A stretch of DNA of 37,852 bases from contig NZ_AUDJ01000041.1 in the NCBI RefSeq assembly GCF_000425405.1, forward strand, positions 1-37,852. The letters run 5' to 3'. The position numbers and the translations under genes are program-made. The notes beneath the pieces were generated by a model. That model was not told the origin of the DNA. It saw only the letters and a list, made by a program, of their open reading frames with translations, and did not search any database. Within the stretch, counting starts at the first letter, position 1; each line of letters begins with the position of its first letter. Origin of the DNA: Ferrimonas kyonanensis DSM 18153. Lineage in GTDB: Bacteria > Pseudomonadota > Gammaproteobacteria > Enterobacterales > Shewanellaceae. Of the stretch, positions 2,327 through 34,424 are shown one piece after another.

Positions 2327-2936
2327 AAATCCGAGCCTACTTTCTCTGGTCATGATAATATTTAATTATTCTATGGCCCCACTTCTAGTTTCACTTACAT
2401 TAATGATGCAGAAATGTAACATGCTCAAAACCAAAAACGACTATCACGACACTTTAAACTAAGCACTCGGACTTTGCATAATTTTCTAACTTTACTACAT
2501 GATTTACATCAATGGTAGTACTACTCACCATCAATACAGAACTAAATTTAAATAAATTTTTACAGATTTACCCACCACGTTAAACATGGTTAAGCAGACA
2601 CTATCAGAAAGATTCATCAACTTCAAAATTTATGACTGGAATTTAACTTATCGTATAAATAATGTTTTGATTAAATACACTATAAATTGAGAAAAACTAA
2701 AATTTAATAAATCATCATCCATTTCAAATTTGATCATTGATATGGAATCACTAATGTTATTTTTTGAAAAATCAATATCACTGCATGCTGTTTTGTCTTG
2801 ATATTCATCTTTGCTTTTTTCTAATCTATTCAAAACATTAACCTCTAATCAACAGCAATAATCAAATCAAAACATTAGTAAGTAAAACTAATACGTTTCA
2901 ATTGTTACTTGAACCGAATCTTATCTATAAATGAAT
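2327..2936. other. AT-rich gap, no convincing gene
   Basis: About 600 bases of AT-rich sequence between the IS graveyard and the marR-like gene. The only candidate is a 61-codon minus-strand frame at 2648-2833 starting with TTG (MNRLEKSKDEYQDK...). It has an AGAGG about 9 bases upstream but no recognisable family. It could be a small gene or chance. The AT-richness resembles the neighbouring marR and exporter genes and suggests a common acquired segment. Confidence 0.4.
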
Positions 2937-3446
2937 TCACTCAAAGCGAGTCATCCACTTCTTCAATAAAGCGTTTAGCTCATTTTGCTCATCATCATCC
3001 AATGGGTTATAAATACTATTTAACACTTCAAAATATAGAGGCATCCCTTTCTTTATTAACATTAGACCAGAATCTGACAACTCAATAAATACGCAGCGTC
3101 TATCCTCATTGCTATTCTCACGAAGGATTAAACCTTTCTGTTCGAGTTTATCTAGCCTGTTTGTCATCGCTCCTGATGTTAATAGAGTCTGCTTTATCAA
3201 ATCACTAGGCATAAGCCTAAAAGGTGCTCCATTACGATAAAGAGTGGCAAGCACATCGAACTCGCCAGAGTTTATTCCAATTCTCTTATATACAGCTAGA
3301 CGCTGCATGTCCAAGTGCTTATTTAACCGTGAAAACCTCCCGATTATCTCAACTAGCTCATGACTAAATCCAGAATGATTTTCTTTCCATTGTTGAGATA
3401 TCTTATCAATATGATCGTGATTTTTACTCATGCTCTTTACGCTCAT
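2937..3446 (-). CDS. MarR-family transcriptional regulator
   Basis: A 169-residue protein of usual length for MarR/EmrR/HpaR-type winged-helix repressors. The wing-helix core is visible: GINSGEFDVLATLYRNG, then LTSGAMTNRLDKLEQKGLI (recognition helix), then the wing ENSNEDRRCVFIELSDSG at about residues 105-125. Such dimers bind a 15-20 bp palindrome and are released by small aromatic or lipophilic ligands. It is transcribed divergently from a DMT-type exporter, the classic arrangement for a regulator controlling an adjacent efflux gene. A perfect 7-2-7 palindrome lies in the shared intergenic region (3565-3580). Its ligand cannot be read from sequence. MSKN at residue 6 is an alternative start. 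Confidence 0.9.
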   Translation of the reverse strand: MSVKSMSKNHDHIDKISQQWKENHSGFSHELVEIIGRFSRLNKHLDMQRLAVYKRIGINSGEFDVLATLYRNGAPFRLMPSDLIKQTLLTSGAMTNRLDKLEQKGLILRENSNEDRRCVFIELSDSGLMLIKKGMPLYFEVLNSIYNPLDDDEQNELNALLKKWMTRFE

Positions 3447-3564
3447 TAGTTCTTTAACCTAGCTTTACATGGAAGGTAATATACACCTATCGTCGATGAA
3501 ATATGCCTAAACACACGCAACAACATGTGACTACATCAAACCCAATAAAATGGAATCCGATTTT

Positions 3565-3580
3565 TGAAGTCACGACTTCA
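3565..3580. promoter_or_regulatory. Perfect palindrome, candidate MarR operator
   Basis: TGAAGTCACGACTTCA is a perfect inverted repeat (7-bp arms, 2-bp centre) in the intergenic region between the divergent marR-like and eamA-like genes. Size and position match operators of MarR-family proteins. The link to this particular regulator is inferred from position only. Confidence 0.5.
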
Positions 3581-3872
3581 TCATATTGTTACAAATTGTG
3601 TTGGTCAAGGGTAGATTGCACCCAAGAACCGACTTAGAAGCCATCACGAAAATCAAGTGCAAAATACCAGCTCTACACTAACAGAAGCACATGCATCAGC
3701 AGAAGCATAATTATTGCTACCACCTACAAATTTCAGGCACTTACGTATAAGGCTAGTACCTAATCCGACGTATCAAGTTGAGCCTGTCACACAATCTTTT
3801 GGTATAAGAACTTTACCTTCAAATTATCTTGATGTAAAGTTACTTTCCATCAAGACATCGAGGATTTTTGAT

Positions 3873-4766
3873 TTGAGAGTTTTCATTGCACTTTTAGGCC
3901 CGCTGCTGTGGGGGACAACTTACGCAACTGTATCGGCTTTTTTTGCTGATTGGTCTCCTTACGCCTTAGCAGCATGGCGCGCTTTACCAGCTGGTATTTT
4001 ACTGCTGTTAGTTAAACCTAGCTTGCCAAAAATTTCTGAAGTTCCTACTTTGTTAATAATCGGATTTATTAATATAACATTGTTTTTTAGCTTACTATTT
4101 GCAAGTGCAATGCAATTGCCGAGTGCATTGGTAGGGGTTGGAATGATTACTCTCCCAGTCATCGGTTTAGTTGTAGTAATTTTAGTTCACAAAAATCAAC
4201 CCAGTACTATACAGATTTTATCAGCAGTGATTTTGCTTTTCTGTTCATCCTATTTGTTTAGTTCATCTAAAAGTGATATCAGTGTATCTTCAGTGCTTTA
4301 TTTGATTGCAGCAATGGCAGTCCTAATTTTCGGCAGCATCATAACAAAATCCGCAATGAAGAAGGTTGACTGGTGGAAATTACTCACCTGGAAGTTAATC
4401 TTTGGTGGAATAATGTTACTACCATTTGCTTATTGGCAACAATATTTAAGTGGATCTCATTATCCCGACCCATTTTCATTATCATTTTCTCAATTAGCGG
4501 CATTGATTTGGCTAATCATTGGAGTGACATCTGTTAGTTATGGAGCCTATGTTTACTCAATACCCAGGATAAGTACAAGTGAACTCAGTTTTTTTGGAAC
4601 TTTAAATCCAATTCTTGCAATGGTGTTAGGCGCTACAGTCATGGGGGATGATTTTAGTGCTGTTCAAATATCCATAATGGTGGTAATGATAAGTTCAAAT
4701 TTGGCTGCACAGTTATATGAAAGGCGACTGAATCAACGTTCGGAGCAGACTATTATTTCATACTAA
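3873..4766 (+). CDS. EamA/DMT-superfamily transporter
   Basis: The frame is open from 3714, but I favour the TTG at 3873, which has AGGA about 9 bases upstream and gives a 297-residue protein, the usual length for EamA proteins. Translation shows about ten hydrophobic helices in two EamA repeats. The first begins LLGPLLWGTTYATVSAFF, the usual PxxWGxxY entry signature. The second contains LIWLIIGVTSVSYGAYVYS and ends with LGATVMGDD (the conserved glycine/glutamate loop). These inner-membrane carriers export metabolites, amino acids or drugs. Together with the divergent MarR regulator it likely forms an inducible efflux pair. AT-rich composition suggests horizontal acquisition. Substrate unknown. 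Confidence 0.85.
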   Translation: MRVFIALLGPLLWGTTYATVSAFFADWSPYALAAWRALPAGILLLLVKPSLPKISEVPTLLIIGFINITLFFSLLFASAMQLPSALVGVGMITLPVIGLVVVILVHKNQPSTIQILSAVILLFCSSYLFSSSKSDISVSSVLYLIAAMAVLIFGSIITKSAMKKVDWWKLLTWKLIFGGIMLLPFAYWQQYLSGSHYPDPFSLSFSQLAALIWLIIGVTSVSYGAYVYSIPRISTSELSFFGTLNPILAMVLGATVMGDDFSAVQISIMVVMISSNLAAQLYERRLNQRSEQTIISY

Positions 4767-5239: not shown

Positions 5240-5280
5240 AAAGACAACGACCTCTAGTGAGAGTTGTTGTCCTTTTTTTC
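5240..5280 (+). terminator. Rho-independent terminator
   Basis: A stem GACAACGACCTCT / AGAGTTGTTGTC with loop AGTG and one bulge is followed by CCTTTTTTTC. It points rightward and insulates the ammonia-lyase-like gene from upstream transcription. It also argues against the 98-codon frame that runs through it being a real gene. Confidence 0.75.
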
Positions 5281-5474
5281 ACTAGATCAGTTCACCATCT
5301 TTCAGTGCTCGAACCACTACACTTTGTAGATGACCTTCTTCCCAATGTCCGGCGTATGAACGCGGTGGAATGCAAGATTTTAATGGCGATACATTTTGTA
5401 TCTCGCTCTTAATTTTACAACATTCCGAAAATCACGAAATAACGTTTGTAGTTCACGGGATACAGTTTTTAATT

Positions 5475-5606: not shown

Positions 5607-7262
5607 ATGAAAATATTAAATAAAATAACTGTTGCCCTTGCAGCCTCTATTCTATCCGGAAATGTTTTAGCTGCAAATGTCATTGAGCTCACCGGGAATA
5701 AGCTCACAATTGACCAGATCTATAAGATTGGTCAAGGGGAAGCGAATGTCGCTACCTCCAAGTTGGGTCTTAAACGTGCAAAGCGGGGTTATGACGTCCT
5801 CATTGGGTCTGCTAAGCAGGGCATGGGTGTCTATGGTCTGACAGTAGGCGTAGGCTGGAACAAGGATCAGCCAGTTTTCGGGAAAGACGGTAAGTTGAGC
5901 CCTGAATTGCTGTCACTGTCTAAGACATTCAACCGTGATTTAGTCTATGCCCACAGTGCAGCTGTTGGTCCTTATATGCCAAAGGAATTGGTCCGTATGG
6001 CCTTGGTGATCCGCTTGAATCAGTATTTAACGGGTCACATAGGTGTTCAGGCTGACATTATTGACATGTATAAGACTTTTCTTAACCACGATATTGTCCC
6101 CCTTATTCCTGAGCGAGGTACTGTAGGTACTGCTGATATCCTTCCTGGAGCTCATATAGCTCTCGCCATGATCGGAGAGTGGGACGTCTACTACAAAGGT
6201 AAGCGCCGCGATGCTAAAGAAGTGATGAAAGAACTTGGAATTAAGCCCTTGCAGTTAATGGGTAAAGACGCTCTCTCAATTTTCTCCAACAACGCTTTGG
6301 CTGTAGCCTATGCCACGGATGTAGCATATCGAGCAGAACACCTCCTTGAGGTTGCCCCTCAAATGGTAGGCATGAGTCTAGAAGCCCTAAATGGCAATGT
6401 GTCCCCTTACCTGGAGCAAACTGTAGTAAATCGTCCTATGCCTCACGTTAAAGAAGTTGCCGGAGACGTAACTGCTATGTGGCAAGGGTCATATCTGTGG
6501 CAGGAAAATGAGCAGCGAGCCCTACAAGATCCCCTAGCCTTGCGTGGCTCTCAGTGGGCTATTGCGGCAGCACGAGATGAACTCGATGGCCTAAAAGGCT
6601 TGCTCAACATCCACTACAATTCGTCTGATGACAATCCATCCATTGTTTTAAACGCTGAGGCTGCTCGTTTACAGAGTCCCGATGCTCCGCGGGTTAAACA
6701 TTACTTCGTAGATCAAGGTAATATTCAGGGCGCAGTCTTTTCGTCCTCCAACTTTGAGCCTGTGCAGTTAGCGCTCCGTGTCGAGGGTCTGACCGTAGCT
6801 TTGGCCCACGTAAGTCGTGACGCCGTGTACCGCACCCTGAAACTGTCTGATCCCCACTTCACTCACTTGACCCGCTTCCTGAATGCTCCTGAAAACCATG
6901 GTCATGGCTTTGGGGCTATCCAGAAGGTACCAGTAGGTCTATTTACTGAGATCCGTAGCCTGGTTAACCCTGTATCCTTGGACGGTATGGCTGTTGCTGG
7001 TTACATTGAGGATACTTACAGCAATATGATTCTAGCGAGTCAACATGCTGAAAAGGTCATCGATAATACCTACTACATTCTAGGCGTAGAGCTCATGCAT
7101 AGCTCTCAGGGCATTGACATCAGGAAAAGGGCTGGAACACCAATCGGTAAGAAGACTAATAAGATTATGAAAGACTATAGGAAGGTAGTTAAATTCGTGG
7201 ATAAAGACCGCCCATTCACTGTGGATATTGAGGCATCTAAGCGTTTCGTAACACATTTATAA
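5607..7262 (+). CDS. Exported HAL/PAL-family ammonia-lyase-like protein lacking the MIO triad
   Basis: A 551-residue protein with a clear Sec signal peptide (MKILNKITVALAASILSGNVLA, cut before ANVI). The rest aligns by eye with the aromatic amino acid lyase family: catalytic-loop Tyr in VYGLTVGVG (Y76), QDPLALRG (Q307, R313), DDNPSIVL (DNP, 342-344) and GNIQG. In the family the cofactor MIO forms from Ala-Ser-Gly in GSVGASGDLAP. Here the segment is GTVGTADILPGAH (171-183) with no Ser-Gly and one residue fewer, so normal MIO cannot form. The Tyr of the usual QDxYSLR motif is also Leu. It may be a MIO-independent lyase (ergothionase-like enzymes are one possibility) or a non-lyase. AGGA lies 7 bases before the ATG. 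It stands alone behind a sigma-54 promoter. Confidence 0.8.
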   Translation: MKILNKITVALAASILSGNVLAANVIELTGNKLTIDQIYKIGQGEANVATSKLGLKRAKRGYDVLIGSAKQGMGVYGLTVGVGWNKDQPVFGKDGKLSPELLSLSKTFNRDLVYAHSAAVGPYMPKELVRMALVIRLNQYLTGHIGVQADIIDMYKTFLNHDIVPLIPERGTVGTADILPGAHIALAMIGEWDVYYKGKRRDAKEVMKELGIKPLQLMGKDALSIFSNNALAVAYATDVAYRAEHLLEVAPQMVGMSLEALNGNVSPYLEQTVVNRPMPHVKEVAGDVTAMWQGSYLWQENEQRALQDPLALRGSQWAIAAARDELDGLKGLLNIHYNSSDDNPSIVLNAEAARLQSPDAPRVKHYFVDQGNIQGAVFSSSNFEPVQLALRVEGLTVALAHVSRDAVYRTLKLSDPHFTHLTRFLNAPENHGHGFGAIQKVPVGLFTEIRSLVNPVSLDGMAVAGYIEDTYSNMILASQHAEKVIDNTYYILGVELMHSSQGIDIRKRAGTPIGKKTNKIMKDYRKVVKFVDKDRPFTVDIEASKRFVTHL

Positions 7263-7489: not shown

Positions 7490-9635
7490 CTAACGCCCCT
7501 TGGATTCCCGCGCAGTGACGTGGCTCAACGGCATAGGCGGCAAGTTGGAGAGCAGATCGCCCCCGTACCTCTTGGTGACCAATCGCGGGTCATACACCAC
7601 CAGATCCTCCCACCACGCCAGTGAACGCACCAACCGTCCCGCCATCTGGCTCAGGGCCAGGGAGCAGCGCGGCAGCATGCACTCAAAGAACTGACGATTC
7701 TCGGCCACCAGTTCGGCCTCAGCCTCACTCAAGGGGTCACTGAGCATCGGGAACGGCAACTTGGCGATCCCCACAAGGGTGAGCAACTCCTTCTCCAGAG
7801 ACAGCCCCTCAGCCAGTGACGCGGTCCCCACCAGCACAGACCGCTTATTAGCCTTGAGTCGGGCCTCATGGGTCGCCAACAGCTCCTCCCTCGGCATGTC
7901 GTATTGATTCAGCAGCGCATCTCCATAGCTGGCGGCATAACGCTCCATGAGCAGGTTGAGCTGACGCTTGGAGCAGAACAGCAGCAGCGCCGCCTGGTGC
8001 CCCTCCAGGCGGCTCAGGAAGTCCTGAGCGATAGCCAGGGTATGGGTGTCATCAGAGTGTGGCCGTGGCTCAGGCAGTGAAGGAGGCACAATCAATCGAC
8101 TCTGGCTCTGGTAGTCAAAAGGCGAGGCGACACAGCGGAAGAACGCCTTGAGCTGGTCGATGCCCAGATCCTGGCGCAACCGCTCGAAGTGGCCACAGGT
8201 ACGAAGGGTGACTGAGGTCAGCACCGTACCGATGTACTGAGTCCAGAACTGGTCATGCAGGGGCTGGTTCACGGCCACCGGGCAGGCATGCAGGGTGATG
8301 GTTCCGCCATTCTCCTGGACCCACTTGGCGATGGGGGCGCCGGAGAACAGCTGGTCACTGAACAGGCCCAGCACCTCAATGACGTTGGTCAGTGGAAACA
8401 GCACAGAATTGAGCTTGAGCTGCGCCGCCGCCTTCTGAGCTTCGTCGTTAGTGGAGCTGCACTCATGGTCAACGAGCTTCTCGGACAGTCCATTGAGGGC
8501 CGCCACCAACTTAGACAGAGGCGCCCGGACCCGATTGATGATCTTGGTGAACTCCTCAGGCAGCTGACCCCGGACAAACCGCAGCTGACGCACGCCGTCA
8601 CGGTCAGCCTGCTGAGTCTTGATGCAGCTGTCCATCCACTGCTTCAACTCCACCACCGCATTGGCCAGACCCTGTGCATGGTTCTGGTGCTTATCCAGCC
8701 ACTGAGTCTGCTTGAGCAGGTTGACGGCAAAGCTGTGAATGTCCTCCAGGTGGAAGTTGGCCTCAGCCAAGGTGCCCAGGCGCTCCAGCACCAGGGCACG
8801 GGCAATGCTGTCACGAAAGGTGTCCTTGGTATGATGCGCCTCATCCAGCACCATCAGGGTGTTCTCCGGTGCGGGAAGCACTCGATGCTCACTGTCGGCC
8901 CAAACCAGGGCGTGATTGGTGATGATCACATCGGCTTCTGAGGCCTTGCGGCGATTAAGCTGAAAGCCACACTGACTGTAGTGGCGACACTGGGTCTTGG
9001 TGCAGCTCTCCTGGGAGCACGCCACCTTACGCCACAGGCTGCCCGGTGACGCCGGTCACCGGGCAGTTGTCCCGCAACCCATCCCAATGCTCGTCACTGA
9101 CCTCAATGGCCTGTTCTATCCAGCGCTGCTCCCTCTCGGTCAGGTTCTTACCCTGCTCCAGCCCGGGCATCAAAGCTGTCTGGCCGGCACCCGCCAACTG
9201 CTTATCGGCATTCAACCGGCAAAAATAGCGACCGCGGCCGGCCACCAATAGGGTCTTCAGCTTCATGCCAGCCCGGGCCAGCATGGGAAGGTCGGAATTA
9301 AACAGTTGCAGCTGCAGGCCCACATTCGCCGTGGCCACCACCAACTGTACCTTGAGCACCTCCTCCTCGGCCTCCTCCCTGGCCAGGGTAAACGCCTGCT
9401 GCAGCGCGGTCATCGGCAGCAGATACCCCAGCGACTTGCCAACGCCGGTCTGCCCCTCGATCACGCACACCCGAGCCTCCCCCTCCTCAAGACCAACGCC
9501 GCCGCAGACATTGGCCACATCGGCGATCATCTGGTTCTGGCCCGAGCGTGGTCGAAACCCAGGCACGCGCTCAGTCAGACCGCTGAGCAGTTTCCGGCAG
9601 TGATCCCGCATACAGCCGTTCAGCTGCATAGGCAT
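7490..9635 (-). pseudogene. dinG: DinG-like Fe-S DNA helicase split by a frameshift
   Basis: Two frames together encode a 5'-3' XPD/DinG-type helicase of about 710 residues, close to E. coli DinG (716). I start the first frame at ATG 9633-9635, which has AAGGAG 8 bases upstream. It holds Walker A (GQTGVGKS, residues 61-68) and ends at TAA 9027. The second frame, to 7490, carries the cysteine cluster expected to bind 4Fe-4S (CSQESCTKTQC, then CGF), the DEAH box (VLDEAHHTKDTF) and the C-terminal motif QMAGRLVRS. The frames join near 9027-9066 at a perfect 28-base hairpin. The conserved order and absence of other lesions suggest a recent mutation, a sequencing artefact or recoding. DinG unwinds R-loops and repair intermediates. 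The gene is divergent from 9838. Confidence 0.85.
9039..9066. repeat. Perfect 12-bp-arm hairpin inside the dinG-like gene
   Basis: CTGCCCGGTGAC, then GCCG, then GTCACCGGGCAG. It sits exactly where the two helicase frames must be joined. On the coding strand, removing the 10 bases GTCACCGGGC would restore one reading frame, reading DNCPVTGSLWRKVACSQ. Those 10 bases are the reverse complement of GCCCGGTGAC just upstream, as expected if a template switch created the palindrome. Confidence 0.85.
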
Positions 9636-9837
9636 ACACAAAGCTCCTTTTCCTTGAGTGTCCACTCTATCAACCACCGAAAACCGCGCAGCTGCGGCAA
9701 CCTCAACAAACCAGTTACTCCAGCACAAAACAATTTACTGCCCCAACAAAAAAGTGCAATAAGTTGAATAAATGAACAAAAACATTGCAAAACACCATTC
9801 ACCAGTATAAGTTTTGAGCATCACAAGGAGGGTGAGT

Positions 9838-19896: not shown

Positions 19897-21000
19897 TTAA
19901 GCAGATACCGCCGTCAGCACTTTGTTCAGTCGAATCATAATGTCACTGGCAATTTTGGCGCCGAGCGAGTCTGCGAGCTGTCGATACTCCAGTACAGCGG
20001 CAACATCATCCTCTGTGGGGTTCAGGGTGTTGATAGCCAGGATCTCAGACTCCAGTACCTTCAGCATGGCAGTTTGGCGTTTCAAGACCCGGGCCTCAGG
20101 GGAGGCTGCGGCTTCAGCTGCCAGTCTCTTACGCTCAGCCTCTTCACGCTTATTAGGCAAAACCTGATTGGCCGCTTCCTCGTCATAGTTCACCAGAAAG
20201 CGGATCTTCTCGGCGGTTCGGCCACGCTTAATCACTTCAAAACCTTTACCGGCCTCGTCGCGAGGCGACCACACCCCATTGGATGCCTTAAAGATACGCT
20301 GCAGGGGGCGCTCTATGACAGACACGCGGAAGGTCTTAAAGCCCTGGCCAAAATCCTTCAGATCGATTTCAAGCATTCTGGTCAGCTGCTCAATCCCAAT
20401 CACATAATCACGTTCGTTCTTAAATTGGCTGATGAAATCCAAAAGACGTTTGTCATAGGTGGAGTTCAAGGTCATGAACAGCCGCAGATTTACAATCGAT
20501 ACGCCATTAGTCTCATGAAGAATTGCCTCTTTCACCTTGGGATTCACCGTCAGTTTTAAGATGCCGTTGTCGTAACTGCTGCGGCCAAGCAACTGCTCCT
20601 TGATCCAGCCTTCATCGGTATCGGACGGGAAAGTAAGCACCTTGGACATCATCCCTTCGATGGCACCCTCCCCTTCCGAGTTGCGGGTGAACATCACCGA
20701 AAGACTCTTCTTGGGCTTAAACATCAGCTCACTGAGCTCAGTCAAGTCGTAGGTGTACACATCCGGGATCATGTCGGGATCGATGTCTAGCGTGGCCAGC
20801 TCCGTCGAAGTGGGTTTAGCGTTCCCCAGAGCCTTTGACTTTTCGTAGCGAAGGTTAGTCGCTTCCTCTTTAATGCTCTTGATGAGCACAGTAAAAATAT
20901 TGAGCTGATTGGGTGAGAGCTTACCCTGCGCTCTGACGACCGGCGTACTTTTTTTAACAACCAACGCTGGCAGCTGTTTTTCATTATTTTCTTGAGACAT
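19897..21000 (-). CDS. rep: Rep_3-type (RepB-like) plasmid replication initiator
   Basis: A 367-residue protein with the two winged-helix layout of Rep_3 initiators. The first domain contains KLSPNQLNIFTVLIKSIKEE and a DPDMIPDVYTYDLTELSELM segment. The second contains YDKRLLDFISQFKNERDYVI, then GIEQLTRMLEIDLKDFGQGF and TFRVSVIERPLQRI. A charged, Ala-rich C-terminal extension (about residues 280-320) follows. Such proteins bind iterons as monomers to melt the origin and bind inverted half-iterons as dimers to repress. Matching direct and inverted sites lie at 24540-24659 and 23198-24311, 2.2-3.7 kb away. GGGGA lies about 9 bases before ATG 21000. Confidence 0.85.
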   Translation of the reverse strand: MSQENNEKQLPALVVKKSTPVVRAQGKLSPNQLNIFTVLIKSIKEEATNLRYEKSKALGNAKPTSTELATLDIDPDMIPDVYTYDLTELSELMFKPKKSLSVMFTRNSEGEGAIEGMMSKVLTFPSDTDEGWIKEQLLGRSSYDNGILKLTVNPKVKEAILHETNGVSIVNLRLFMTLNSTYDKRLLDFISQFKNERDYVIGIEQLTRMLEIDLKDFGQGFKTFRVSVIERPLQRIFKASNGVWSPRDEAGKGFEVIKRGRTAEKIRFLVNYDEEAANQVLPNKREEAERKRLAAEAAASPEARVLKRQTAMLKVLESEILAINTLNPTEDDVAAVLEYRQLADSLGAKIASDIMIRLNKVLTAVSA

Positions 21001-21013
21001 TGGACCGTTTCCC

Positions 21014-21037
21014 CTGATGGCCTACAAAAGGTATCAG
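21014..21037. promoter_or_regulatory. Imperfect inverted repeat in the rep leader
   Basis: CTGAT...ATCAG arms, with an inner CC/GG pair, 14-37 bases upstream of the rep start codon. It could be an operator or part of the leader RNA. It does not match the 15-bp iteron half-site. Confidence 0.35.
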
Positions 21038-21240
21038 TTAGGAAATTGAGCTGCAACCTATTACGATCGATTTTATCCACCGGGCGATCCTTAGCCCTTA
21101 ATCCCTGTAATTACAGCGATAACGAGTGAGTAAGTACCAACTATAGCCCACGGCTACATTCTGCTGCCTATTTGAATACCTGTAGCTCTGCATGCCACTT
21201 CCCTGGCACCAGACCGAATAGGATGTCCGAAGACCATATT

Positions 21241-21269
21241 GTTTGATCACTCACATTAAAGTTTGATCA
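21241..21269. repeat. Two GTTTGATCA direct repeats upstream of rep
   Basis: GTTTGATCA occurs at 21241-21249 and 21261-21269, an exact 20-base offset. It is located in the probable rep promoter region. The motif shares TGATC with the iteron half-site but lacks CTAC. Confidence 0.5.
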
Positions 21270-21370
21270 GTTTAATGGCCCACGACAGGCCCATGCTCCC
21301 TTGTATCTCCTTCCAATGGCCGCAGTGGCGCCACCACAGACCGCCCAGGGCGGCCACAGATCCCATAACG

Positions 21371-21402
21371 ACAAAACCGGCTCATGGGCCGGTTTTGTTT
21401 TC
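21371..21402. terminator. Strong hairpin terminator between rep and satD regions
   Basis: An 11-bp perfect stem ACAAAACCGGC / GCCGGTTTTGT with loop TCATGG is followed by TTTCT. The A run on the left arm makes it usable from either direction, so it may insulate the rep promoter and the satD promoter from each other. Confidence 0.8.
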
Positions 21403-21403
21403 T

Positions 21404-21505
21404 AGGTGTGTACGATTTAATGCACAAACCTATACTGTGCATGATATAGTGCACAACGACCGCCTGTGTATCAAATTATACACACCTGCGAGGTGTGTAT
21501 AATTT
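21404..21505. promoter_or_regulatory. Operator/promoter region of the satD operon
   Basis: The perfect palindrome at 21473-21505 has 15-bp arms (AAATTATACACACCT / AGGTGTGTATAATTT) around GCG. Its right arm contains a TATAAT (21498-21503). A near copy of that arm, AGGTGTGTACGATTT, lies at 21404-21418 (13 of 15 bases). Between them, TGCACA or TGTGCA hexamers occur at 21421, 21436 and 21450. The density of repeated sites and the overlap with a -10 element indicate tight repression. The regulator is not identified. Confidence 0.65.
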
Positions 21506-21559
21506 AGAACACACTACGCCTTAATCATGAGTCTCTTCGAAAAGGACAAGGAGCCCCTA

Positions 21560-23013: not shown

Positions 23014-23197
23014 GAGATCGGGCTGACTCTGCGATTAAAGCGGCCAGAGAGATCGAAGCCCCGAATGACCGCAATGTGGTGTTTGAAGACACTCCGGCGC
23101 GAAGCGCACTGAAAAAGTGATCAATCTAAACGACTGATTGAAAGATAAAATGCCCAGCCCCCCTGATACTGATCAAACATCATTGTCGCCGGACATA
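23014..23197. other. Gap with C-terminal coding remnant
   Basis: After the DUF3307 stop, one frame (about 23026-23119) reads ADSAIKAAREIEAPNDRNVV, then FEDTPARSALKK and a stop. It has no start and looks like the tail of a lost gene. The palindrome array begins just beyond. Confidence 0.4.
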
Positions 23198-24311
23198 GGG
23201 ATCAGGATGTAGTCTGACTACGTTTTGATCCCCTCATTCTCTCCCGTCGCTGGGGCATTCTGTTGCCATTATATCCAAACTATTGGCATGCTCGACGCAC
23301 CATAGGGATCAACCTGTAGTCTGGCTACGATATGATCCCGTTTATCAAGGCCACCAACTGGCTGATATGTAGCCCCTTGCGACAAAACGTAACCACAACC
23401 GCCTTATTGACAGGCATCAGTATGTTGTCGAACCACTGCGCTGCCCCCAGGCTCGGGCCAAAATGGGATCAGAAGGTAGCCCTACTACAATGTGATCCCT
23501 TTAATCTCATGCCCGACCGGGATCAGAACGTAGCCCTACTACGAGGAGATCCCCCAACCCTTAGGTCAGAAGGGATCAAGTTGTAGTCAGACTACGATGT
23601 GATCCCCACAAAACTGCGGTAAGGGGAACTATCTGTGGCCGTTTAGGGAAGTTTCTGGGATCTGAATGTAGCCCTACTACTATTTGATCCCCTCAGTTGG
23701 CCTCTAAACGGGATCGGGATGTAGCCTCACTACGAATTGATCCCGGAATTGTGGATGCCAATAGGGCTCAGACTGTAGCCGTACTACGATTTGACCGCGC
23801 TTTTCAGGGGGCAAAGGGGATCCGTTTGTAGCCTGACTACGAAGTGATCCCAAGATCATGGGGTAAAACAGGGATCAGAATGTAGCCCTACTACTATTTG
23901 ATCCCCTGATTGCCACAGAGAAACGGAATCAATTTATAGCCAGGCAAACGAAAAACCGAGCAATCACTAAGTGATCATGCCGAAATTGGTTAAGCTTGCA
24001 CCAAAATAACACCAACACTCGCTCACCCCATTAGGGATCAGAATGTAGCTTCACTACAGATCGATCCCTAATTTTCCGTAACAATGGGGATCAGAACGTA
24101 GCCCTACTACGATGCGATCCCATTGGCTCTGCTGGCACCGGGCAGCGCACTGAGCCCGCGTACGGCTTACCTCTCGCACCTATACGGATAGGAATAGCGT
24201 AGTTAAACAAACACATACTGTGAGCGCCTACAAGCCAGGGGCAATAGGACGATGGACAAAGCGCGGCTAACTACAATAGGGATCAGGATGTAGCCACTAC
24301 AAAATGATCCC
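23198..24311. repeat. Array of 35-bp palindromes every 53-54 bp
   Basis: The unit is GGGATCR-N4-GTAG-N5-CTAC-N4-YGATCCC. Good copies start at 23198, 23305, 23465, 23519, 23572, 23657, 23710, 23817, 23871, 24034, 24087 and 24279 (the last has a 3-base centre). Degenerate copies start at 23764 and 23925, with eroded traces near 23358 and 23413. Neighbouring starts differ by 53 or 54, and several larger gaps are near multiples (107, 160, 109). Exceptions are 85 and 192. Spacers of 18-19 bases are unrelated to each other. The N4 blocks are not complementary across a unit, so DNA recognition by a dimer explains conservation better than RNA folding. Each half is identical in form to the iterons at 24540-24659. 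No protein-coding gene lies here. Confidence 0.95.
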
Positions 24312-24539
24312 ACGCTAGCGTTAGCCTGGCCAGCAGAATAGTCGCTGTCGAGAGCTACTGTCAGCGTTATACCGATTCCATACCAAATCAGTCTGTTAGG
24401 TCGGGTTAGTCGAGGTCATTTTGGGAGTGAACCGAAAGGGCAGCAGAATGTAGTCGAAACCCAGGGGTAGGCTACAAAGCGTAACCCTTCGGATGTCTGT
24501 AACGGTTGAGCCCACCGGTGGATAACTAGGAACCTAGTG
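24312..24539. other. Spacer between palindrome array and iterons
   Basis: No gene. It holds isolated half-sites (GAATGTAG near 24447 and GGTAGGCTAC near 24466) and a DnaA-box-like GGTGGATAA at 24517-24525 (8 of 9 to the reverse consensus). It probably belongs to the replication origin. Confidence 0.45.
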
Positions 24540-24659
24540 CTACATAGCGATCCCAAAACACTTCAAAACGATCCGGAATTGCTACCTCGCGATCCCGATC
24601 CACTACTCGGCGATCCCACTTTTCTACATGACGATCCCTAACCGCTACAACTAGATCCA
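24540..24659 (+). repeat. Six 21-bp iterons
   Basis: CTAC-N4-CGATCCC repeats start at 24540, 24561, 24582, 24603, 24624 and 24645, an exact 21-bp period. The second (CTTC, CGATCCG) and sixth (AGATCCA) copies are degenerate. Twenty-one base pairs is two helical turns, the norm for iterons of Rep_3 plasmids. The 15-base core is the same half-site used in the inverted array upstream, so the same protein, most likely the Rep at 19897-21000, should read both. Confidence 0.9.
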
Positions 24660-24830
24660 AGATCGCATGAAAAAGCTTTATAAATCTTGGTCTTAGTAAA
24701 TGCCTAACCTTCTTAATCTTACTAACCCATTTAACTAAATACTAATCTTGTTTAACTGCCTGTGGACTGTGCATAACCCCTTCGGGGTTCTACACGGAGC
24801 CCACAAGCACAAATCATTTTTTTCTTTATG
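24540..24830. other. Putative origin of replication (oriV)
   Basis: The iterons are followed by an AT-rich, repeat-like tract (24660-24760, with AATCTT, CTTAAT and CTAA motifs) suited to unwinding. A perfect DnaA box follows (TGTGCATAA at 24768-24776, the reverse of TTATGCACA), then a small CCCCTTCGGGG hairpin (24777-24787). This is the standard order of an iteron origin. It lies between the Rep-site array and parA. Confidence 0.8.
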
Positions 24831-24947
24831 TTTATAAACAAGGAGTATCCAAGGAATTGATGAGAAAACAGACAATTTGCCACATTTTTTTAAAGTACGC
24901 AAAATGCTGACGCTCTAACCATAGAAGTTTGCTGGAGCACGATTTTT

Positions 24948-24975
24948 TTGATCTTATCATAAAAACGTGTATGCT
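24948..24975 (+). promoter_or_regulatory. parAB promoter
   Basis: TTGATC (-35), a 16-base spacer and TATGCT (-10), ending 32 bases before the parA start. The short AT-rich leader overlaps no other feature. ParA proteins with N-terminal DNA-binding domains usually repress this promoter. Confidence 0.55.
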
Positions 24976-25007
24976 AGATTTATCTCTACATTACAGGGCT
25001 CTGCATT

Positions 25008-26230: not shown

Positions 26231-27304
26231 ATGGCTAGAAAACGTGCACCCATTGGCCGTAGCGCAACGGCAAGACCATCCCCAGTTGTTGCCGATGAAA
26301 TCCAGAGCCTCCCTTTCGAGGTAACCGATCAACAAAGAGATGCATATAAAGCCGGTATCAAGGCCCTAGGTGACCTTGCCAAGTTCGCTGTAGGCTTCGG
26401 CAACCCGATCATCGGTGAGCATCACCAGTACCCGACGATTCGCCTTAAGCTGGATCATAAGGTCACTGCTAAGCGTACCGTGATCAACCCTTTGACTAAC
26501 TCTCGGGATCAGGAAAGCTTGAACATCGAGCTCCTGGGCCATATCAGCGGCAATTGGACCGGCGTCAACAGCACTCCTGCTATTGCACGGTTTGTGGATG
26601 ACAACATCGAAGTGCTGGCAGGCTCCTGCCGTCGCCTGGTGGCCATCGAGCTGGAAGGCGGCTACTTGGTAGACGTTGGCTTTGAAGTGCCTGAGACAGA
26701 GGCCCGCTTTGCCGCCAACAGCGCCGAAAGCCAGATGCAACAATCTGCTTGGGAGCGAGGTAACGTTGCCCTGCAAATGGAACAGCGTGACAATGTGTCA
26801 CGTAAAGAGATCGCCAAGCGCCTAAATACCGATGCCGGCGACCTGTCAAAGATGATGAACGCCGTGGAGCAGTTGGAACTGGAGTCCAATCTCAAGACTC
26901 AGTTTGCCGGTTATCGAGGGCTTGGAATTGCCGCCCTGTCCACTTTGGGCAAGGCCGTTGCACCGATTGCGGCTGATAACCGCGCCAAGACCAAGTTTTA
27001 CGCTGAGCTGTCGAAGCTCACCTCTGGCGATAACTACGCTCAGCTGGCTTCAGAGAAGCGCCCAGCTGCCCTGGTGAAGCTGTGCAGGGCCGCCTCGGAT
27101 GTGGCGCGTGGTAAGGCCAAGCCTGCCAAGCAGCCGCCGGTGACCACCCATATTGCGGGCGATACCGCTCGCAAGAAGGCGGCTATCTGGATGGTGAGTG
27201 ATGCAGCCAAGCGCAGCGTGACTATCAATGCCACTAAGTTGACCGCAGAGCAGGTGGAGAAGCTCACCGGCTTGATGCGCGAGTTTGGCGCCGACAACCT
27301 GTAG
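26231..27304 (+). CDS. parB: ParB centromere-binding protein (P1/SopB-like)
   Basis: A 357-residue protein. An N-terminal ParA-interaction tail (MARKRAPIGRSATARPSP) is followed by a ParB/Srx-like domain region (SLNIELLGHISGN, then ARFVDDNIEVLAGSCRRLVA). The central helix-turn-helix (VSRKEIAKRLNTDAGDLSKM, about 195-214) and a basic C-terminal dimerisation part follow. The size and type Ia ParA partner match the P1/F class. In that class the centromere is downstream of parB, and a good candidate occurs within 25 bases of the stop codon, with a second copy 2.4 kb further on. Confidence 0.9.
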   Translation: MARKRAPIGRSATARPSPVVADEIQSLPFEVTDQQRDAYKAGIKALGDLAKFAVGFGNPIIGEHHQYPTIRLKLDHKVTAKRTVINPLTNSRDQESLNIELLGHISGNWTGVNSTPAIARFVDDNIEVLAGSCRRLVAIELEGGYLVDVGFEVPETEARFAANSAESQMQQSAWERGNVALQMEQRDNVSRKEIAKRLNTDAGDLSKMMNAVEQLELESNLKTQFAGYRGLGIAALSTLGKAVAPIAADNRAKTKFYAELSKLTSGDNYAQLASEKRPAALVKLCRAASDVARGKAKPAKQPPVTTHIAGDTARKKAAIWMVSDAAKRSVTINATKLTAEQVEKLTGLMREFGADNL

Positions 27305-27325: not shown

Positions 27326-27404
27326 AGTTTCCGACACGTTTTTTCTGTCGCAAGTTATTGAAAGCAAATGAAACATCCCTCGAAATTGGAGGCTCCAATA
27401 TACA
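27326..27404. other. parS: Candidate centromere parS1
   Basis: Left block AGTTTCCGACACGTTTTTT (27326-27344). Right block contains the palindrome ATTGGAGGCTCCAAT (27385-27399) followed by ATACA. Between them, CAAGTTATTGAAA (27351-27363) matches the reverse IHF consensus at all but one fixed position. The same parts at exactly the same distances recur at 29729. Two protein-box clusters flanking an IHF bend is the architecture of P1 parS. Confidence 0.75.
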
Positions 27405-29728: not shown

Positions 29729-29820
29729 AGTTTCCGACACGTTTTTTTCACTGTAAGCCTTTGATTTACTATGGTGTATGCCTCAAAATTGGAGGCTCCA
29801 ATATACAGCAATTTGGAGCC
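29729..29820. other. parS: Candidate centromere parS2
   Basis: Repeats the parS1 blocks exactly: the 19-base left block at 29729-29747, and the 22-base right block at 29786-29807 around ATTGGAGGCTCCAAT (29788-29802). The left-to-palindrome distance of 59 bases is identical. TAAGCCTTTGATT (29754-29766) is a perfect reverse IHF consensus, at the same 25-base offset as in parS1. The intervening bases differ, so spacing and boxes are conserved rather than the whole segment being a recent duplication. An extra ATTTGGAGCC box at 29811-29820 forms a hairpin with GGCTCCAA. Confidence 0.75.
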
Positions 29821-31307: not shown

Positions 31308-32225
31308 TTAGAAGCCACTCCAGTTGATTTGGGTCACTTCTTCCTCGGTATGAGGGGCACTGTCTACCATCACCGGCATGGCCTTGTGGGCGGACTGATT
31401 GGCCTGTTGACGCTTGGCGTCCAGCTTGACGCTGGCACCGGCGATCAGGGCTTGCAGCGGCGAAGGGCTGCCAGCGACATGGCGCTTGTTGCCCACGGCC
31501 TTCATCACCTTTTCATTGGCGCTGGCGCTATCAAACTCCTCAAAATGGCGATGGTGAAAGTGCACCAGATTCATCAGGTGCTCAAAAGCATCACTGCGCT
31601 CCTCTGAGCTGTAGGAGTAGGGCTGCCACTGGGGGATGGCCCGACGAACACAGGAGCCAAGGGCATACTCTGCTTGATCGTGAAGCGGTAAAAATCCACC
31701 AAACAGCTTCTCTCGGGCGTCCACGAGGGCGCTGGAGAGCTGGTCAACGGTCATCAGCGTGGTGTGGATCAAGCCTTCCGCAGTGGCGATGGTGACGAAG
31801 GCGCAGCGCAGCTCCCCTCTGTCCTGTTGGCTTGGTCGCCAGTACACCCGCTCATTACGGCTTTTGAAACGAAAGTCATCGTTGCTGAACACGAGATTGG
31901 CCTCGGCCTTCTCGATAAATCCTGAGTCGATGGCCCGTCGTAGCATGAACGTGTAGTTGAGCATCGGTACCGCTTCGGGGAAGCGAGTCTGGTGGTTCAC
32001 CTTAGGCAGCAAGACCACCCCTTTACCCAGATCATCCAGAGCGCCCAGTTCGTAAAGCTCCTCCAGTGCCAAGGAGACTGATTCAGCGGTGACGTCTTTT
32101 AGGCCAATACAATCTGTGCCTTTGTCATAGGCGTCATTAAACATTGGTTCTAGCGACTTCAGCACCGCTGCATAAGTATCGGGGAAACGTTCGGCGATAG
32201 CTTGACTGTATGCGGTTGGGATCAT
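31308..32225 (-). CDS. Second, divergent RecT-like annealing protein
   Basis: A 305-residue protein directly downstream of RecT. By eye it follows the RecT core: VVLLPKVNHQTRFPEAVPML in the position of the substrate loop; LNYTFMLRRAIDSGFIEKAE for the GYKGLIDLARRSG helix; ANLVFSNDDFRFKSRNERV for the VYENDEF strand pair; DRGELRCAFVTIATAEGLIH; VDQLSSALVDAREKL; and YALGSCVRRAIPQW in the place of the KTVIRRLFK helix. The C-terminal 90 residues are a less conserved, charged tail. RecT proteins pair complementary single strands as rings or filaments. A tandem paralogue could form mixed assemblies. The relationship should be confirmed by structure-based comparison. Confidence 0.65.
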   Translation of the reverse strand: MIPTAYSQAIAERFPDTYAAVLKSLEPMFNDAYDKGTDCIGLKDVTAESVSLALEELYELGALDDLGKGVVLLPKVNHQTRFPEAVPMLNYTFMLRRAIDSGFIEKAEANLVFSNDDFRFKSRNERVYWRPSQQDRGELRCAFVTIATAEGLIHTTLMTVDQLSSALVDAREKLFGGFLPLHDQAEYALGSCVRRAIPQWQPYSYSSEERSDAFEHLMNLVHFHHRHFEEFDSASANEKVMKAVGNKRHVAGSPSPLQALIAGASVKLDAKRQQANQSAHKAMPVMVDSAPHTEEEVTQINWSGF

Positions 32226-32280
32226 CGGGTATCTCCTTATTCGTTGCTGACACCTACGATAACTACGGGCGAAATCGGCG

Positions 32281-33009
32281 CTACTGGTAGCTCACGGCAG
32301 TGGTGGCGGACTCCAGCTGAGCCTGTGTCATCCCCACAGCTTCAAGCTCGCTGTACCAGGCGTTGAAGGCGTAACGCCAGCACGTCTTCTGATACATCAT
32401 CTCCATGTAAGGACCGCACCAGGTGTTGTTGCTGCCCCCGGCGTTCAGCCCGTTGCTGGCGGCCTCAAGCAGCACCTCTTTGGGCACCAGCAGGGTTTTC
32501 ACCATGCCGCCAGGCTGGTGAGCGACCACATAGCCGCACTTGAGTCGACCGCGCTCATGGTTAGGCCGTCCGTCGTGCTCATGGACCGGAAGCTGGGTGC
32601 CAGAGCGGTAGGTGAAGGTATCCTCCTCGAACACCAGATCGGCGTGGCCGCCAATCATAAAGCCGGTGCGGCAGGCGAGGGCAATCATGCCCTTGTAGCC
32701 GACGTACAGGATGGTGATGGTTCTACCGCTCTGTACGTCCTTCTGTCCCATCAGGTAGATGTGTTTCTTGCGTGGGTCGAAGCTCAGCCCCAGACGGGCG
32801 GCCTCGCAGAACGCCTGCATGATGGAGCCTGGCTCAGAGCAGGTGAGATCCAGATTCTGATACCGGGAGGCTTCAATCTGCTGGTGGGCCCAGCCAGCTT
32901 CAAGGCCGTAGTTGAGATTAAAGCCGCCGTTTTGGGTCAGGTCTATGTAGGTCTCTCGGCTGTCCTTAAGGGCAGTGACAAAATCCGGCTCGTTAATCAT
33001 CTGGTTCAT
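32281..33009 (-). CDS. recT: RecT-family single-strand annealing protein
   Basis: A 242-residue protein matching RecT cores: RKKHIYLMGQKDVQSGRTIT, then ILYVGYKGMIALACRTGFMI (the GYKG-I-LA-R-G signature), GHADLVFEEDTFTYRSGTQL, GRLKCGYVVAHQPGG and MMYQKTCWRYAFNAW (the terminal K-T-R helix). RecT anneals ssDNA overhangs produced by its exonuclease partner and supports RecA-independent recombination. GGGAGA lies 8 bases before the ATG. It is preceded by the RecE-like exonuclease gene (12-base gap), so the pair mirrors Rac-prophage recE-recT. Confidence 0.9.
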   Translation of the reverse strand: MNQMINEPDFVTALKDSRETYIDLTQNGGFNLNYGLEAGWAHQQIEASRYQNLDLTCSEPGSIMQAFCEAARLGLSFDPRKKHIYLMGQKDVQSGRTITILYVGYKGMIALACRTGFMIGGHADLVFEEDTFTYRSGTQLPVHEHDGRPNHERGRLKCGYVVAHQPGGMVKTLLVPKEVLLEAASNGLNAGGSNNTWCGPYMEMMYQKTCWRYAFNAWYSELEAVGMTQAQLESATTAVSYQ

Positions 33010-33021
33010 GATGCGTCTCCC

Positions 33022-34101
33022 TTACAACATGATGGTGGTGACGGTGCCCTTGGGGGTGTAGCCGTCAAAGACTTGGGTTTCCAGAGCGCTGGCGAACTGC
33101 GGTAGCATGGCGTGGTACTCGGCCTCGGCTTTTTTCACCGACAGTGGGTGCAGGTCGTACACCTCGCAAATATCGGCTGCTTCGAACTCGACGTAGCAAA
33201 AGGCGAACAGCGCTAATGGCACACCACACAGGCTGGCAACGTAGCTGTAGTGAACCTGTTGCAGGTCGTAGCGCAGGTCCCGCATCTGGAAAAACACTTT
33301 GCGATCCGAGGCATCGGCAGCGGTTTTTACATCCGTGGCGAACCGGCGCTTGTCCAGCCAGTCGAAGCGACACTTAAGCATCAGCCCGGTCTTGGGGCAG
33401 CGTGCAATGAAGCTCACCTCGGCAAAACCCATGCTGTGGTCGATGAGGAAGGTGGCCGCTGGCTCCGCTTGCACTGTTTTGGTGGCTCGTGTGGCCTTCT
33501 GGAACACCACCTTATCCACCACTTGCAGCCCCTTGGCCTTGGCATATTCCTCCTGCTGGGCTTGCAACACAGCGAGAATCTTGACGTTGGGATCCGCATT
33601 GAGCAGACGCTTGGCCAGTTCCTCCTTGGTGCCACTGACGGCTAGTCCCAACTCCTCACACTTTTTCTTGAGATCCGCCTGTGTCACCAAACAGCCGTCC
33701 ACATCATCTGCCTCGATGCGAGGGGTAAACTGGCTATCCACATTGTGTGGCTCAAGGATCATGGCATGGGTGACTGAGCCCGTATCGAAGGTGCGTTGCT
33801 GCACCTTGGTGATTGCCTTCTTTAGTTCGGTATACACATACTCACGGGCGTAGTGAGCGCCAGATTTGGCGAACTTCTTGAAACCGGTTGAGGAGTGCGC
33901 CTTGAGCGAGTGGTAGACCTCGTTGGGCATATCGAAGTAGATGCCCTCTATCAAATCACCGTCTTCATCTAAGAAGTTTGGGTCGCCGCAGTCGTCATAA
34001 GCGGGCTTTGCCATGTTCCACCACTCAATGCTGGTATCGACATTGGCGATGCCAGCGATGGGGTTGGGGTCAACTAGCGTGACACTCGGCATAGCAGTCA
34101 T
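33022..34101 (-). CDS. RecE-like exonuclease with an inserted SAP domain
   Basis: The frame opens at 34176. I prefer ATG 34101 (MTAMPSVTLVDPNP), with GGAG about 10 bases upstream, giving 359 residues. It resembles the RecE/DUF3799 5'-3' exonuclease: GIYFDMPNEVYHSLKAHSST, FDTGSVTHAMILEP, and the PD-(D/E)XK-type core LKCRFDWLDKRRFATDVKTA (Asp then D-x-K), then YSYVASLCGVPLALFAFCYV. Between the GxxxHAMILEP motif and the nuclease core sits QADLKKKCEELGLAVSGTKE then ELAKRLL, a clear SAP helix-extension-helix DNA-binding motif (about residues 141-167). It resects dsDNA ends to load RecT, encoded 12 bases downstream. Confidence 0.85.
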   Translation of the reverse strand: MTAMPSVTLVDPNPIAGIANVDTSIEWWNMAKPAYDDCGDPNFLDEDGDLIEGIYFDMPNEVYHSLKAHSSTGFKKFAKSGAHYAREYVYTELKKAITKVQQRTFDTGSVTHAMILEPHNVDSQFTPRIEADDVDGCLVTQADLKKKCEELGLAVSGTKEELAKRLLNADPNVKILAVLQAQQEEYAKAKGLQVVDKVVFQKATRATKTVQAEPAATFLIDHSMGFAEVSFIARCPKTGLMLKCRFDWLDKRRFATDVKTAADASDRKVFFQMRDLRYDLQQVHYSYVASLCGVPLALFAFCYVEFEAADICEVYDLHPLSVKKAEAEYHAMLPQFASALETQVFDGYTPKGTVTTIML

Positions 34102-34424
34102 AACGATACTCTCCATGGCTTCGATGGTGTCAGTATCCCAACTGGCCAAAGGGGCGCTACTGGCGGGGCCGGACAATAGGGTAGGGCGGTCACAACCAAA
34201 TACTGGCTATGCGACTGCTGGAATCTGTCGCTACACTTTGACGATTCCCCTTTCTGGTATGTTGGGTGAGATTATGTGTGGGCAGCACCCGTTGTGGCTA
34301 TGGATGCGCCGCGCTTCAAACCGTGTGCCATACACGTCTTAACGATTTCGTAGAATCTCTTCTTGAAACCCCAGCTGTTACCAATTTGTATGGAATGGAC
34401 ACCAGAATTCGCAAGGAGCGACTC
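34102..34424. other. Divergent promoter region
   Basis: About 320 bases between the minus-strand recombination operon and the plus-strand lipoprotein gene, so both promoters should lie here. I did not find an unambiguous -35/-10 pair or operator. The open frame of the lipoprotein runs back to 34266 but reads poorly. Confidence 0.4.

What the first reader, a model, noticed from the sequence alone, without database searches (positions are those of the whole stretch)
23198..24311. Phased array of 35-bp palindromes, a possible new plasmid control element
Seen: at least 12 good and 2-4 degraded copies of GGGATCR-N4-GTAG-N5-CTAC-N4-YGATCCC, most exactly 53 or 54 bp apart, in 1.1 kb without a gene. 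A 53.5-bp spacing is about five helical turns, so all units face the same way. Spacers are unrelated, and the N4 blocks are not self-complementary, which argues for binding by a protein dimer rather than for RNA hairpins. Known: Rep_3 initiators bind one inverted half-iteron pair as repressors. Inference: here the operator form has been multiplied into a scaffold that titrates or handcuffs Rep, or organises the origin. I know of no described plasmid with such an array.
Basis: partly seen in the sequence, partly recalled or inferred. Interest (0 to 1): 0.92.

Follow-up and report, generated by a model that had tools for sequence, protein, structure and literature searches.

The report
Head-to-head iteron array beside plasmid origin
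A bacterial plasmid carries, next to what looks like its replication origin, a 1.1-kb ladder of mirror-image copies of the short sites its replication protein probably binds, most likely a brake on plasmid copy number in a layout I did not find described.

Summary
The array is real: 12 palindromes score at least 19/22 against GGGATCR-N4-GTAG-N5-CTAC-N4-YGATCCC, plus a 33-bp copy; shuffles of the window reach at most 16/22. Seven of 12 spacings are 53 or 54 bp and the units share one helical face. So each unit is best read as two complete iterons head to head, and the array as an accessory (inc-like) locus that titrates or handcuffs Rep, a RepE/pi-type initiator. ParB is an unlikely ligand: after parB, and again 2.4 kb on, lies a bipartite site of its own. 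RNA hairpins are not supported. GATC lies in 24 of 26 arms and the host has SeqA and a D12 methylase, so control by methylation is open. The palindrome was found in no other genome searched. A distant plasmid has phased accessory iterons with two head-to-head pairs. Binding and function are inferred, not shown. New variant of a known kind.

The parts
23198..24311 (+). array of 13 head-to-head iteron pairs (units of 35 bp starting 23198, 23305, 23465, 23519, 23572, 23657, 23710, 23764, 23817, 23871, 24034, 24087; 33-bp unit at 24279)
23413..23447 (+). degraded unit (16/22), uncertain
23925..23939 (-). degraded left arm, uncertain
24540..24659 (+). six direct iterons CTAC-N4-YGATCCC, 21 bp apart (24540, 24561, 24582, 24603, 24624, 24645): probable origin
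24660..24767 (+). AT-rich stretch next to the iterons, probable unwinding element
   Evidence: 60-bp windows starting 24660-24720 are 63-72% A+T; other AT-rich windows follow up to parA
24768..24776 (-). DnaA box TTATGCACA
   Evidence: three perfect boxes in the window, 3.1 expected
24439..24453 (-). variant half-site CTACATTCTGCTGCC without GATC
21154..21168 (+). identical variant half-site upstream of rep, possible Rep operator
19897..21000 (-). Rep, Rep_3 (RepE/pi-type) initiator, 367 aa
25008..26222 (+). ParA with N-terminal HTH (P1/SopA kind)
26231..27304 (+). ParB-like protein
27326..27404 (+). candidate parS: box AGTTTCCGACACGTTTTTT, 40 bp, palindrome ATTGGAGGCTCCAAT; not part of the array, argues against ParB as its ligand
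29729..29807 (+). second copy of the candidate parS, with an IHF consensus match at 29754

Best explanation
The array is an accessory, negative-control (inc-like) locus of an iteron plasmid. The plasmid's Rep protein opens the neighbouring origin by binding six head-to-tail iterons (CTAC-N4-CGATCCC, 21 bp apart). The same 15-bp site, mostly with T instead of C before GATCCC, is repeated in the array as 13 head-to-head pairs, mostly five helical turns apart. Each half-site has two conserved blocks one turn apart, as expected for a protein with two winged helices, so a pair can seat two Rep protomers side by side on one face and the array can hold about 26 protomers against 6 at the origin. The most likely effect is to titrate Rep and to hold it in register to pair (handcuff) with Rep on the origin iterons, so that the origin fires only when Rep is in excess. 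Shown: sites, spacing, phase, polarity, origin anatomy, Rep family, a separate candidate parS. Inferred: that Rep is the ligand, that the array inhibits, and how.
For: Same half-site in the array and in an iteron-type origin. In the whole own genome the exact half-site occurs 25 times in this window and 5 times as singles on other contigs. Rep belongs to the two-winged-helix initiators: PF01051, pi and RepE by profile, RepE and then RctB by fold (model mean pLDDT 77). L010, with a distant Rep, uses one iteron in three places: 4 direct copies 22 bp apart, 11 reversed copies in a second array (8 of 10 spacings 31 or 32 bp), and one at the start of the rep frame. L016, an Erwinia plasmid with a related ParA but no recognisable Rep similarity, has two groups of five iterons about 21-23 bp apart at the origin and, beyond rep, an accessory array of the same iteron with many spacings of 40-43 bp (about four turns) and two head-to-head pairs offset by 23 bp. 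L009 has iterons 20, 53 and 53 bp apart upstream of a rep gene. ParB has its own bipartite candidate site. Stem pairs show no compensatory change.
Against: No binding data. rep lies 2.2 kb from the array and its upstream region has no full-consensus site, only one variant half-site. Eight distant Rep loci were read (L005, L006, L007, L008 = L011, L009/L021, L010, L012, L013): none shows a regular array of head-to-head pairs; two related ones (L007, L012, both Arsenophonus) show no iteron array; one (L010) has a separate second array. L010's Rep is a weak hit (E 1.9e-4; 19% identity) and so is L009's (E 6.6e-4). The units are polar, which a symmetric dimer does not require. The DnaA box is at chance number.
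Confidence: 0.75

Rival explanations
1. The array is the plasmid's centromere: ParB binds the palindromes, as SopB binds the tandem inverted repeats of sopC.
For: A ParA/ParB operon of the P1/SopA kind starts 0.7 kb away; sopC of F is also a tandem array of inverted repeats (recalled).
Against: The arm is shared with origin-type direct repeats. A separate bipartite site lies 22 bp after parB and is repeated 2.4 kb on with the same 40-bp gap; its 19-base box is expected 0.03 times at up to 3 mismatches and is found twice without any. Its palindrome is found twice exactly, although at up to 3 mismatches that count (2) equals chance (2.05).
Confidence: 0.1
2. The array is mainly a GATC cluster for SeqA or for delayed remethylation after replication, and the flanking letters serve another host protein.
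For: GATC in 24 of 26 arms, 26-27 bp apart in the regular stretches; host has SeqA and a D12-class methylase.
Against: The CTAC block and outer GGG/CCC are as conserved as GATC and have no role in it; the same extended site makes up the origin repeats.
Confidence: 0.08
3. The units are transcribed and act as RNA hairpins.
For: Each unit can fold into a 7-bp and a 4-bp stem.
Against: 0 of 11 pairs change on both sides in 12 units and the one unit with changed outer bases breaks two pairs; 8 pairs never vary and are silent. The only Rfam match was below its gathering score. Promoter- and terminator-like sites are at shuffle level. Helical phasing over 1 kb has no reason in RNA.
Confidence: 0.02

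Closest known systems
Vibrio cholerae chromosome 2 origin (ori2-min/ori2-inc with RctB)
   Same: Six head-to-tail initiator sites about two turns apart, each with GATC, one DnaA box, an AT-rich region and an adjoining region of further initiator sites (passages of PMC6090056); RctB follows RepE in the fold search.
   Different: There the inhibitory 39-mers are unlike the iterons, lack GATC and are few; here the accessory sites are the iteron itself, head to head, 13 times, with GATC. Rep has 367 aa against 658 for RctB (length from the same passages).
Accessory iteron arrays of plasmids F (incC) and P1 (incA)
   Same: Iterons repeated outside the minimal origin for negative control of copy number (recalled, not tested here).
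   Different: Arrays of single iterons (recalled); here nearly every accessory site is half of a precisely spaced head-to-head pair.
Accessory iteron array of the Erwinia sp. E602 plasmid (L016)
   Same: Same iteron at the origin and in a large array beyond rep, many spacings near four helical turns, and two head-to-head pairs.
   Different: Most accessory sites are single and direct; the iteron, Rep and pair offset (23 bp against 20) differ. Its function is not known to me.
RepE and pPS10 RepA operators
   Same: Inverted repeat bound by the Rep dimer (pPS10: passages of PMC4857107).
   Different: A single operator at the rep promoter; here both iteron blocks are kept in both arms and the unit is repeated 13 times, away from rep.
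IncU plasmid RA3 DR1
   Same: Repeat array next to the rep genes, a strong incompatibility determinant said to titrate RepB (passages of PMC9455977).
   Different: Composite 38- and 60-bp repeats, not iteron pairs.
sopC of plasmid F
   Same: Tandem array of inverted repeats beside a ParA/ParB operon (recalled).
   Different: Bound by the centromere protein and not built of origin iterons (recalled).

Membership tests
iteron-controlled (Rep_3, theta) replicon | Rep of the two-winged-helix RepE/pi family | tested here: met
   PF01051 E 3.2e-9; pi 9e-8, RepE 5e-5 with profile A1; Foldseek 2z9o E 2.4e-6
iteron-controlled (Rep_3, theta) replicon | several direct iterons about two helical turns apart | tested here: met
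   six copies 21 bp apart
iteron-controlled (Rep_3, theta) replicon | AT-rich stretch and DnaA box at the iterons | tested here: met
   63-72% A+T; TTATGCACA at 24768, but such boxes are at chance number in the window
iteron-controlled (Rep_3, theta) replicon | Rep binds the iterons | not testable with these tools
   needs gel shift or footprint
accessory negative-control (inc) locus | array of the origin's own sites outside the minimal origin | tested here: met
   26 arms of the same consensus, 21 of them exact, about 230-1340 bp from the origin repeats
accessory negative-control (inc) locus | lowers copy number and causes incompatibility in trans | not testable with these tools
   needs a mini-replicon
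RctB/ori2-type origin | initiator homologous to RctB over its length | tested here: not met
   367 against 658 aa; RctB only a partial fold match (E 8.6e-4, TMq 0.23); best profile matches are pi and RepE
RctB/ori2-type origin | inhibitory 39-mers unlike the iterons and without GATC | tested here: not met
   array arms share the iteron consensus and carry GATC in 24 of 26
sopC/parS centromere | site recognised by the plasmid's ParB | tested here: inconclusive
   binding not tested; a separate duplicated bipartite candidate parS exists
RNA hairpin array | compensatory changes in the stems | tested here: not met
   0 of 11 pairs with changes on both sides in 12 units; 8 pairs never vary
CRISPR array | near-identical repeats with spacers of roughly 26-72 bp (recalled) | tested here: not met
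   18-19-bp spacers between units 53 or 54 bp apart; units differ at their N positions

The most novel reading that the evidence does not exclude
The array is a methylation-licensed Rep scaffold: Rep binds well only to fully methylated half-sites (as RctB does to its 12-mers), about 26 protomers line up on one face of a five-turn ladder, and the ladder as a whole, not single sites, counts plasmid copies and times re-initiation by the rate at which its 24 GATC sites are remethylated. The conserved polarity of the units would set the direction in which the ladder pairs with the origin.
Probability: 0.15. Interest if true: 0.82.

Novelty: new variant of a known kind. Interest (0 to 1): 0.6.

Why it matters
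How bound initiators pair origins (handcuffing), and whether facing monomers or dimers do it, is usually argued from direct iterons. A natural array in which the origin's own site is set head to head at a fixed helical phase, 13 times, beside a six-iteron origin separates orientation, phase and site number in one replicon and makes those questions testable by simple deletions. GATC in nearly every site also gives a plasmid-sized comparison for methylation-dependent initiator binding, as described for the second chromosome of Vibrio in the passages read here.

Tried and rejected
Nucleotide relatives of 23100-25000: none in 72,556 plasmid records (phages and E. coli genomes not searched with this stretch). 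The exact 20-base palindrome: none in viral contigs or genome contigs; an 18-base form: none in viral contigs. With up to 2 mismatches: own genome only, 1 of 152 genomes of the family. Rep and ParB in viral contigs: none confirmed. Rep in plasmids: 13 of 72,556 records, all distant, best hit 25.7% identity; phages: 1 of 50,697; relatives: 3 of 97 genomes, own one included; order: 1 of 394, the own one, at E 1e-8; class: 1 of 369, the own one, at E 1e-10; genome contigs: 3 loci, one identical to L008. So co-variation of motif and Rep in close relatives could not be tested.

The iterons of Shewanella p1 (L005) contain CATTCTGATCC and one array arm reads CTACATTCTGATCCC, but the blocks sit differently in the two repeats and I claim no homology of the sites. 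The 53-bp repeats of L009 are 87% alike over the whole unit and are cut by the contig end, so they may be simple tandem duplicates; the whole contig was fetched again (L021) and only scanned once more. The T-against-C comparison before GATCCC (array 20:3, origin 0:5, Fisher P 6e-4) leaves out three array arms and one origin repeat with another base. The polarity test is post hoc; unit 23305 fits the reverse and 23572 is nearly neutral. A Rep operator was sought at 20990-21530 without a clear result. Circularity was not shown: no terminal overlap. The motif-blind scan for inverted families covered 7 kb of the window and nine loci; besides iterons it lists mostly AT-rich families that look like chance, and only two families per locus were printed.

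Full report
The observation. Twelve copies of the 35-bp pattern score 19-22 of 22 specified positions and a thirteenth has a shorter centre; 20 shuffles of the window never exceed 16. Seven of the 12 spacings are 53 or 54 bp; the rest are 107, 160 and 163 (about two or three periods) and 85 and 192. The centres share one helical phase at 10.70 bp per turn (resultant 0.877, 0 of 3000 random placements). Most of that strength comes from the regular spacings; the two gaps off the 53.4-bp grid add only P 0.06. Spacers are unrelated (30% identity against 25% expected), so the period is unlikely to be the trace of a recent tandem duplication. The variable blocks are not random: left arms tend to GAAT, right arms to GATK, and 11 of 12 units agree in polarity (chance 0.006).

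The palindrome arm, CTAC-N4-YGATCCC, goes on past the array as six direct copies starting at 24540, 24561, 24582, 24603, 24624 and 24645, exactly 21 bp apart; four match the pattern exactly and two have two mismatches each. A stretch of 63-72% A+T and a perfect DnaA box follow (three such boxes in the window is the chance number). This is the anatomy of an iteron origin. In the whole genome the exact half-site occurs 25 times in this window and 5 times as singles on other contigs. Origin repeats mostly have C before GATCCC, array arms mostly T.

The proteins. The initiator found here is Rep at 19897-21000, family PF01051. A profile of Rep and five distant relatives finds pi of R6K and RepE of F among solved structures. 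An AlphaFold2 model (four sequences, mean pLDDT 77) matches RepE entries first, at modest TM-scores (up to 0.41 of the query), and then RctB. Two conserved blocks one turn apart in each 15-bp half-site suit a protein with two winged helices. In a palindrome the four blocks have centres at 3.5, 13.5, 22.5 and 32.5, in successive turns of one face. Hence my reading that a unit seats two Rep protomers head to head with full contacts. This is inference.

Relatives of Rep. Rep is rare (13 of 72,556 plasmid records, all distant; no genome but the own one in samples of the order, 394, and class, 369). The family is Shewanellaceae by inference: a contig of a same-family genome (L008) is identical to one titled Shewanellaceae bacterium. 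Eight distant Rep loci were read with repeat tools, five of them only in part, and rescanned whole by a coarse script. Direct iterons show in L005, L006, L008, L009, L010 and L013, none in L007 and L012, which are both Arsenophonus. None has a regular array of head-to-head pairs. L010, from a genome of 62% completeness, has four direct iterons 22 bp apart with DnaA-type boxes on both sides (my reading), eleven copies of the same iteron in the other orientation, 8 of 10 spacings being 31 or 32 bp (three turns), and one copy at the first ATG of the rep frame: the same logic with single accessory sites. Its Rep is only 19% identical. L009 has iterons 20, 53 and 53 bp apart before a rep gene, cut by the contig end.

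A useful outsider. The Erwinia sp. E602 plasmid (L016) was reached through ParA (59% identity); its Rep shows no significant similarity. It has five iterons at 5255-5354 and five at 5608-5709, 21-23 bp apart, between rep and parA. Beyond rep, at 2793-4184, the same iteron recurs more than 20 times: between 2990 and 3363 the spacings are 41, 40, 43, 84, 42, 41, 40 and 42 bp (about four turns), and at 3893/3916 and 4053/4076 two copies face each other, both times offset by 23 bp. So phased accessory iteron arrays, and isolated head-to-head pairs, occur with other initiators. What stays particular to the window is that the whole accessory array is made of such pairs at one phase.

ParB as a rival. 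The par operon is of the P1/SopA kind. Twenty-two bases after parB lie AGTTTCCGACACGTTTTTT and, 40 bp on, the perfect palindrome ATTGGAGGCTCCAAT; both recur exactly at 29729 and 29788 with the same gap, there with an IHF consensus match between them; the first copy has none by the strict consensus used. The 19-base box is expected 0.03 times at up to 3 mismatches and found twice without any; the palindrome's count at up to 3 mismatches is at chance, but both copies are exact. The layout is that of P1 parS, which I recognise from memory in the stretch after parB of pEA13_2. The window's palindrome was not found in L016 or L017, as expected of distant ParBs. The array therefore need not be the centromere.

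RNA as a rival. In 12 units no stem pair changes on both sides, and the one unit with changed outer bases breaks two pairs; eight of 11 pairs never vary and are silent. The only Rfam match was below its gathering score. Promoter- and terminator-like sites are at shuffle level.

Methylation. GATC is in 24 of 26 array arms and all six origin repeats, 26-27 bp apart in the regular stretches. The host has SeqA and one D12-class adenine methylase (GATC specificity not tested). In V. cholerae the RctB 12-mers, six in tandem and each with GATC, are bound well only when fully methylated (passages of PMC2865523; PMC6090056). A similar switch here is possible and untested.

Comparison and novelty. It works like the accessory negative-control loci of iteron plasmids, and its origin resembles ori2 of Vibrio chromosome 2 in layout, but it is not an RctB origin: the initiator is of another size and nearer to RepE/pi, and the accessory sites are the iteron itself. 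RA3 shows that a repeat array near rep can be a strong incompatibility determinant said to titrate the initiator (passages of PMC9455977). Seven literature searches listed no plasmid with an array of head-to-head iterons. Near misses: single inverted partial iterons at rep start codons (passages of PMC3832669) and 'partially palindromic iterons' of a Bacillus plasmid (one passage of PMC1196294). I read passages of seven papers and saw the rest only as listings; subscription papers are mostly not held, so absence from print is not shown. I rate it a new variant of a known kind, interest 0.6.

Noticed in passing
21407-21513: Four 20-bp palindromes of the form TGTGTA...CACA, exactly 29 bp apart, directly upstream of the gene at 21527 (SatD-like by eye, no family match): a second phased palindrome array on the plasmid, probably an operator.
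   Followed up: partly
27326-27404 and 29729-29807: Duplicated bipartite candidate parS with the same 40-bp gap, one 22 bp after parB, the other 2.4 kb downstream.
   Followed up: yes
7490-9728: DinG-type helicase split into two reading frames (7490-9025 and 9027-9728), with a perfect palindrome with 12-bp arms at 9039-9066 near the split.
   Followed up: no
1990 and 5708: Exact direct repeat of at least 35 bp that starts near 1990 and recurs near 5708.
   Followed up: no
21154-21168 (+) and 24439-24453 (-): Identical 15-mer CTACATTCTGCTGCC, a half-site variant without GATC, once upstream of rep and once between array and origin; possibly methylation-independent Rep sites.
   Followed up: partly
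L010:6184-7040: Another replicon of the family with a phased accessory iteron array besides its 22-bp origin iterons; in the main run alternate copies have GATC beside them.
   Followed up: partly
L016:2793-4184: Erwinia sp. E602 plasmid: accessory array of the origin iteron, many spacings of 40-43 bp, two head-to-head pairs offset by 23 bp and 160 bp apart.
   Followed up: partly
31308-34176: RecT-like protein, a second partial RecT-like protein and an exonuclease VIII-like protein with SAP domain: a phage-type recombination module.
   Followed up: no
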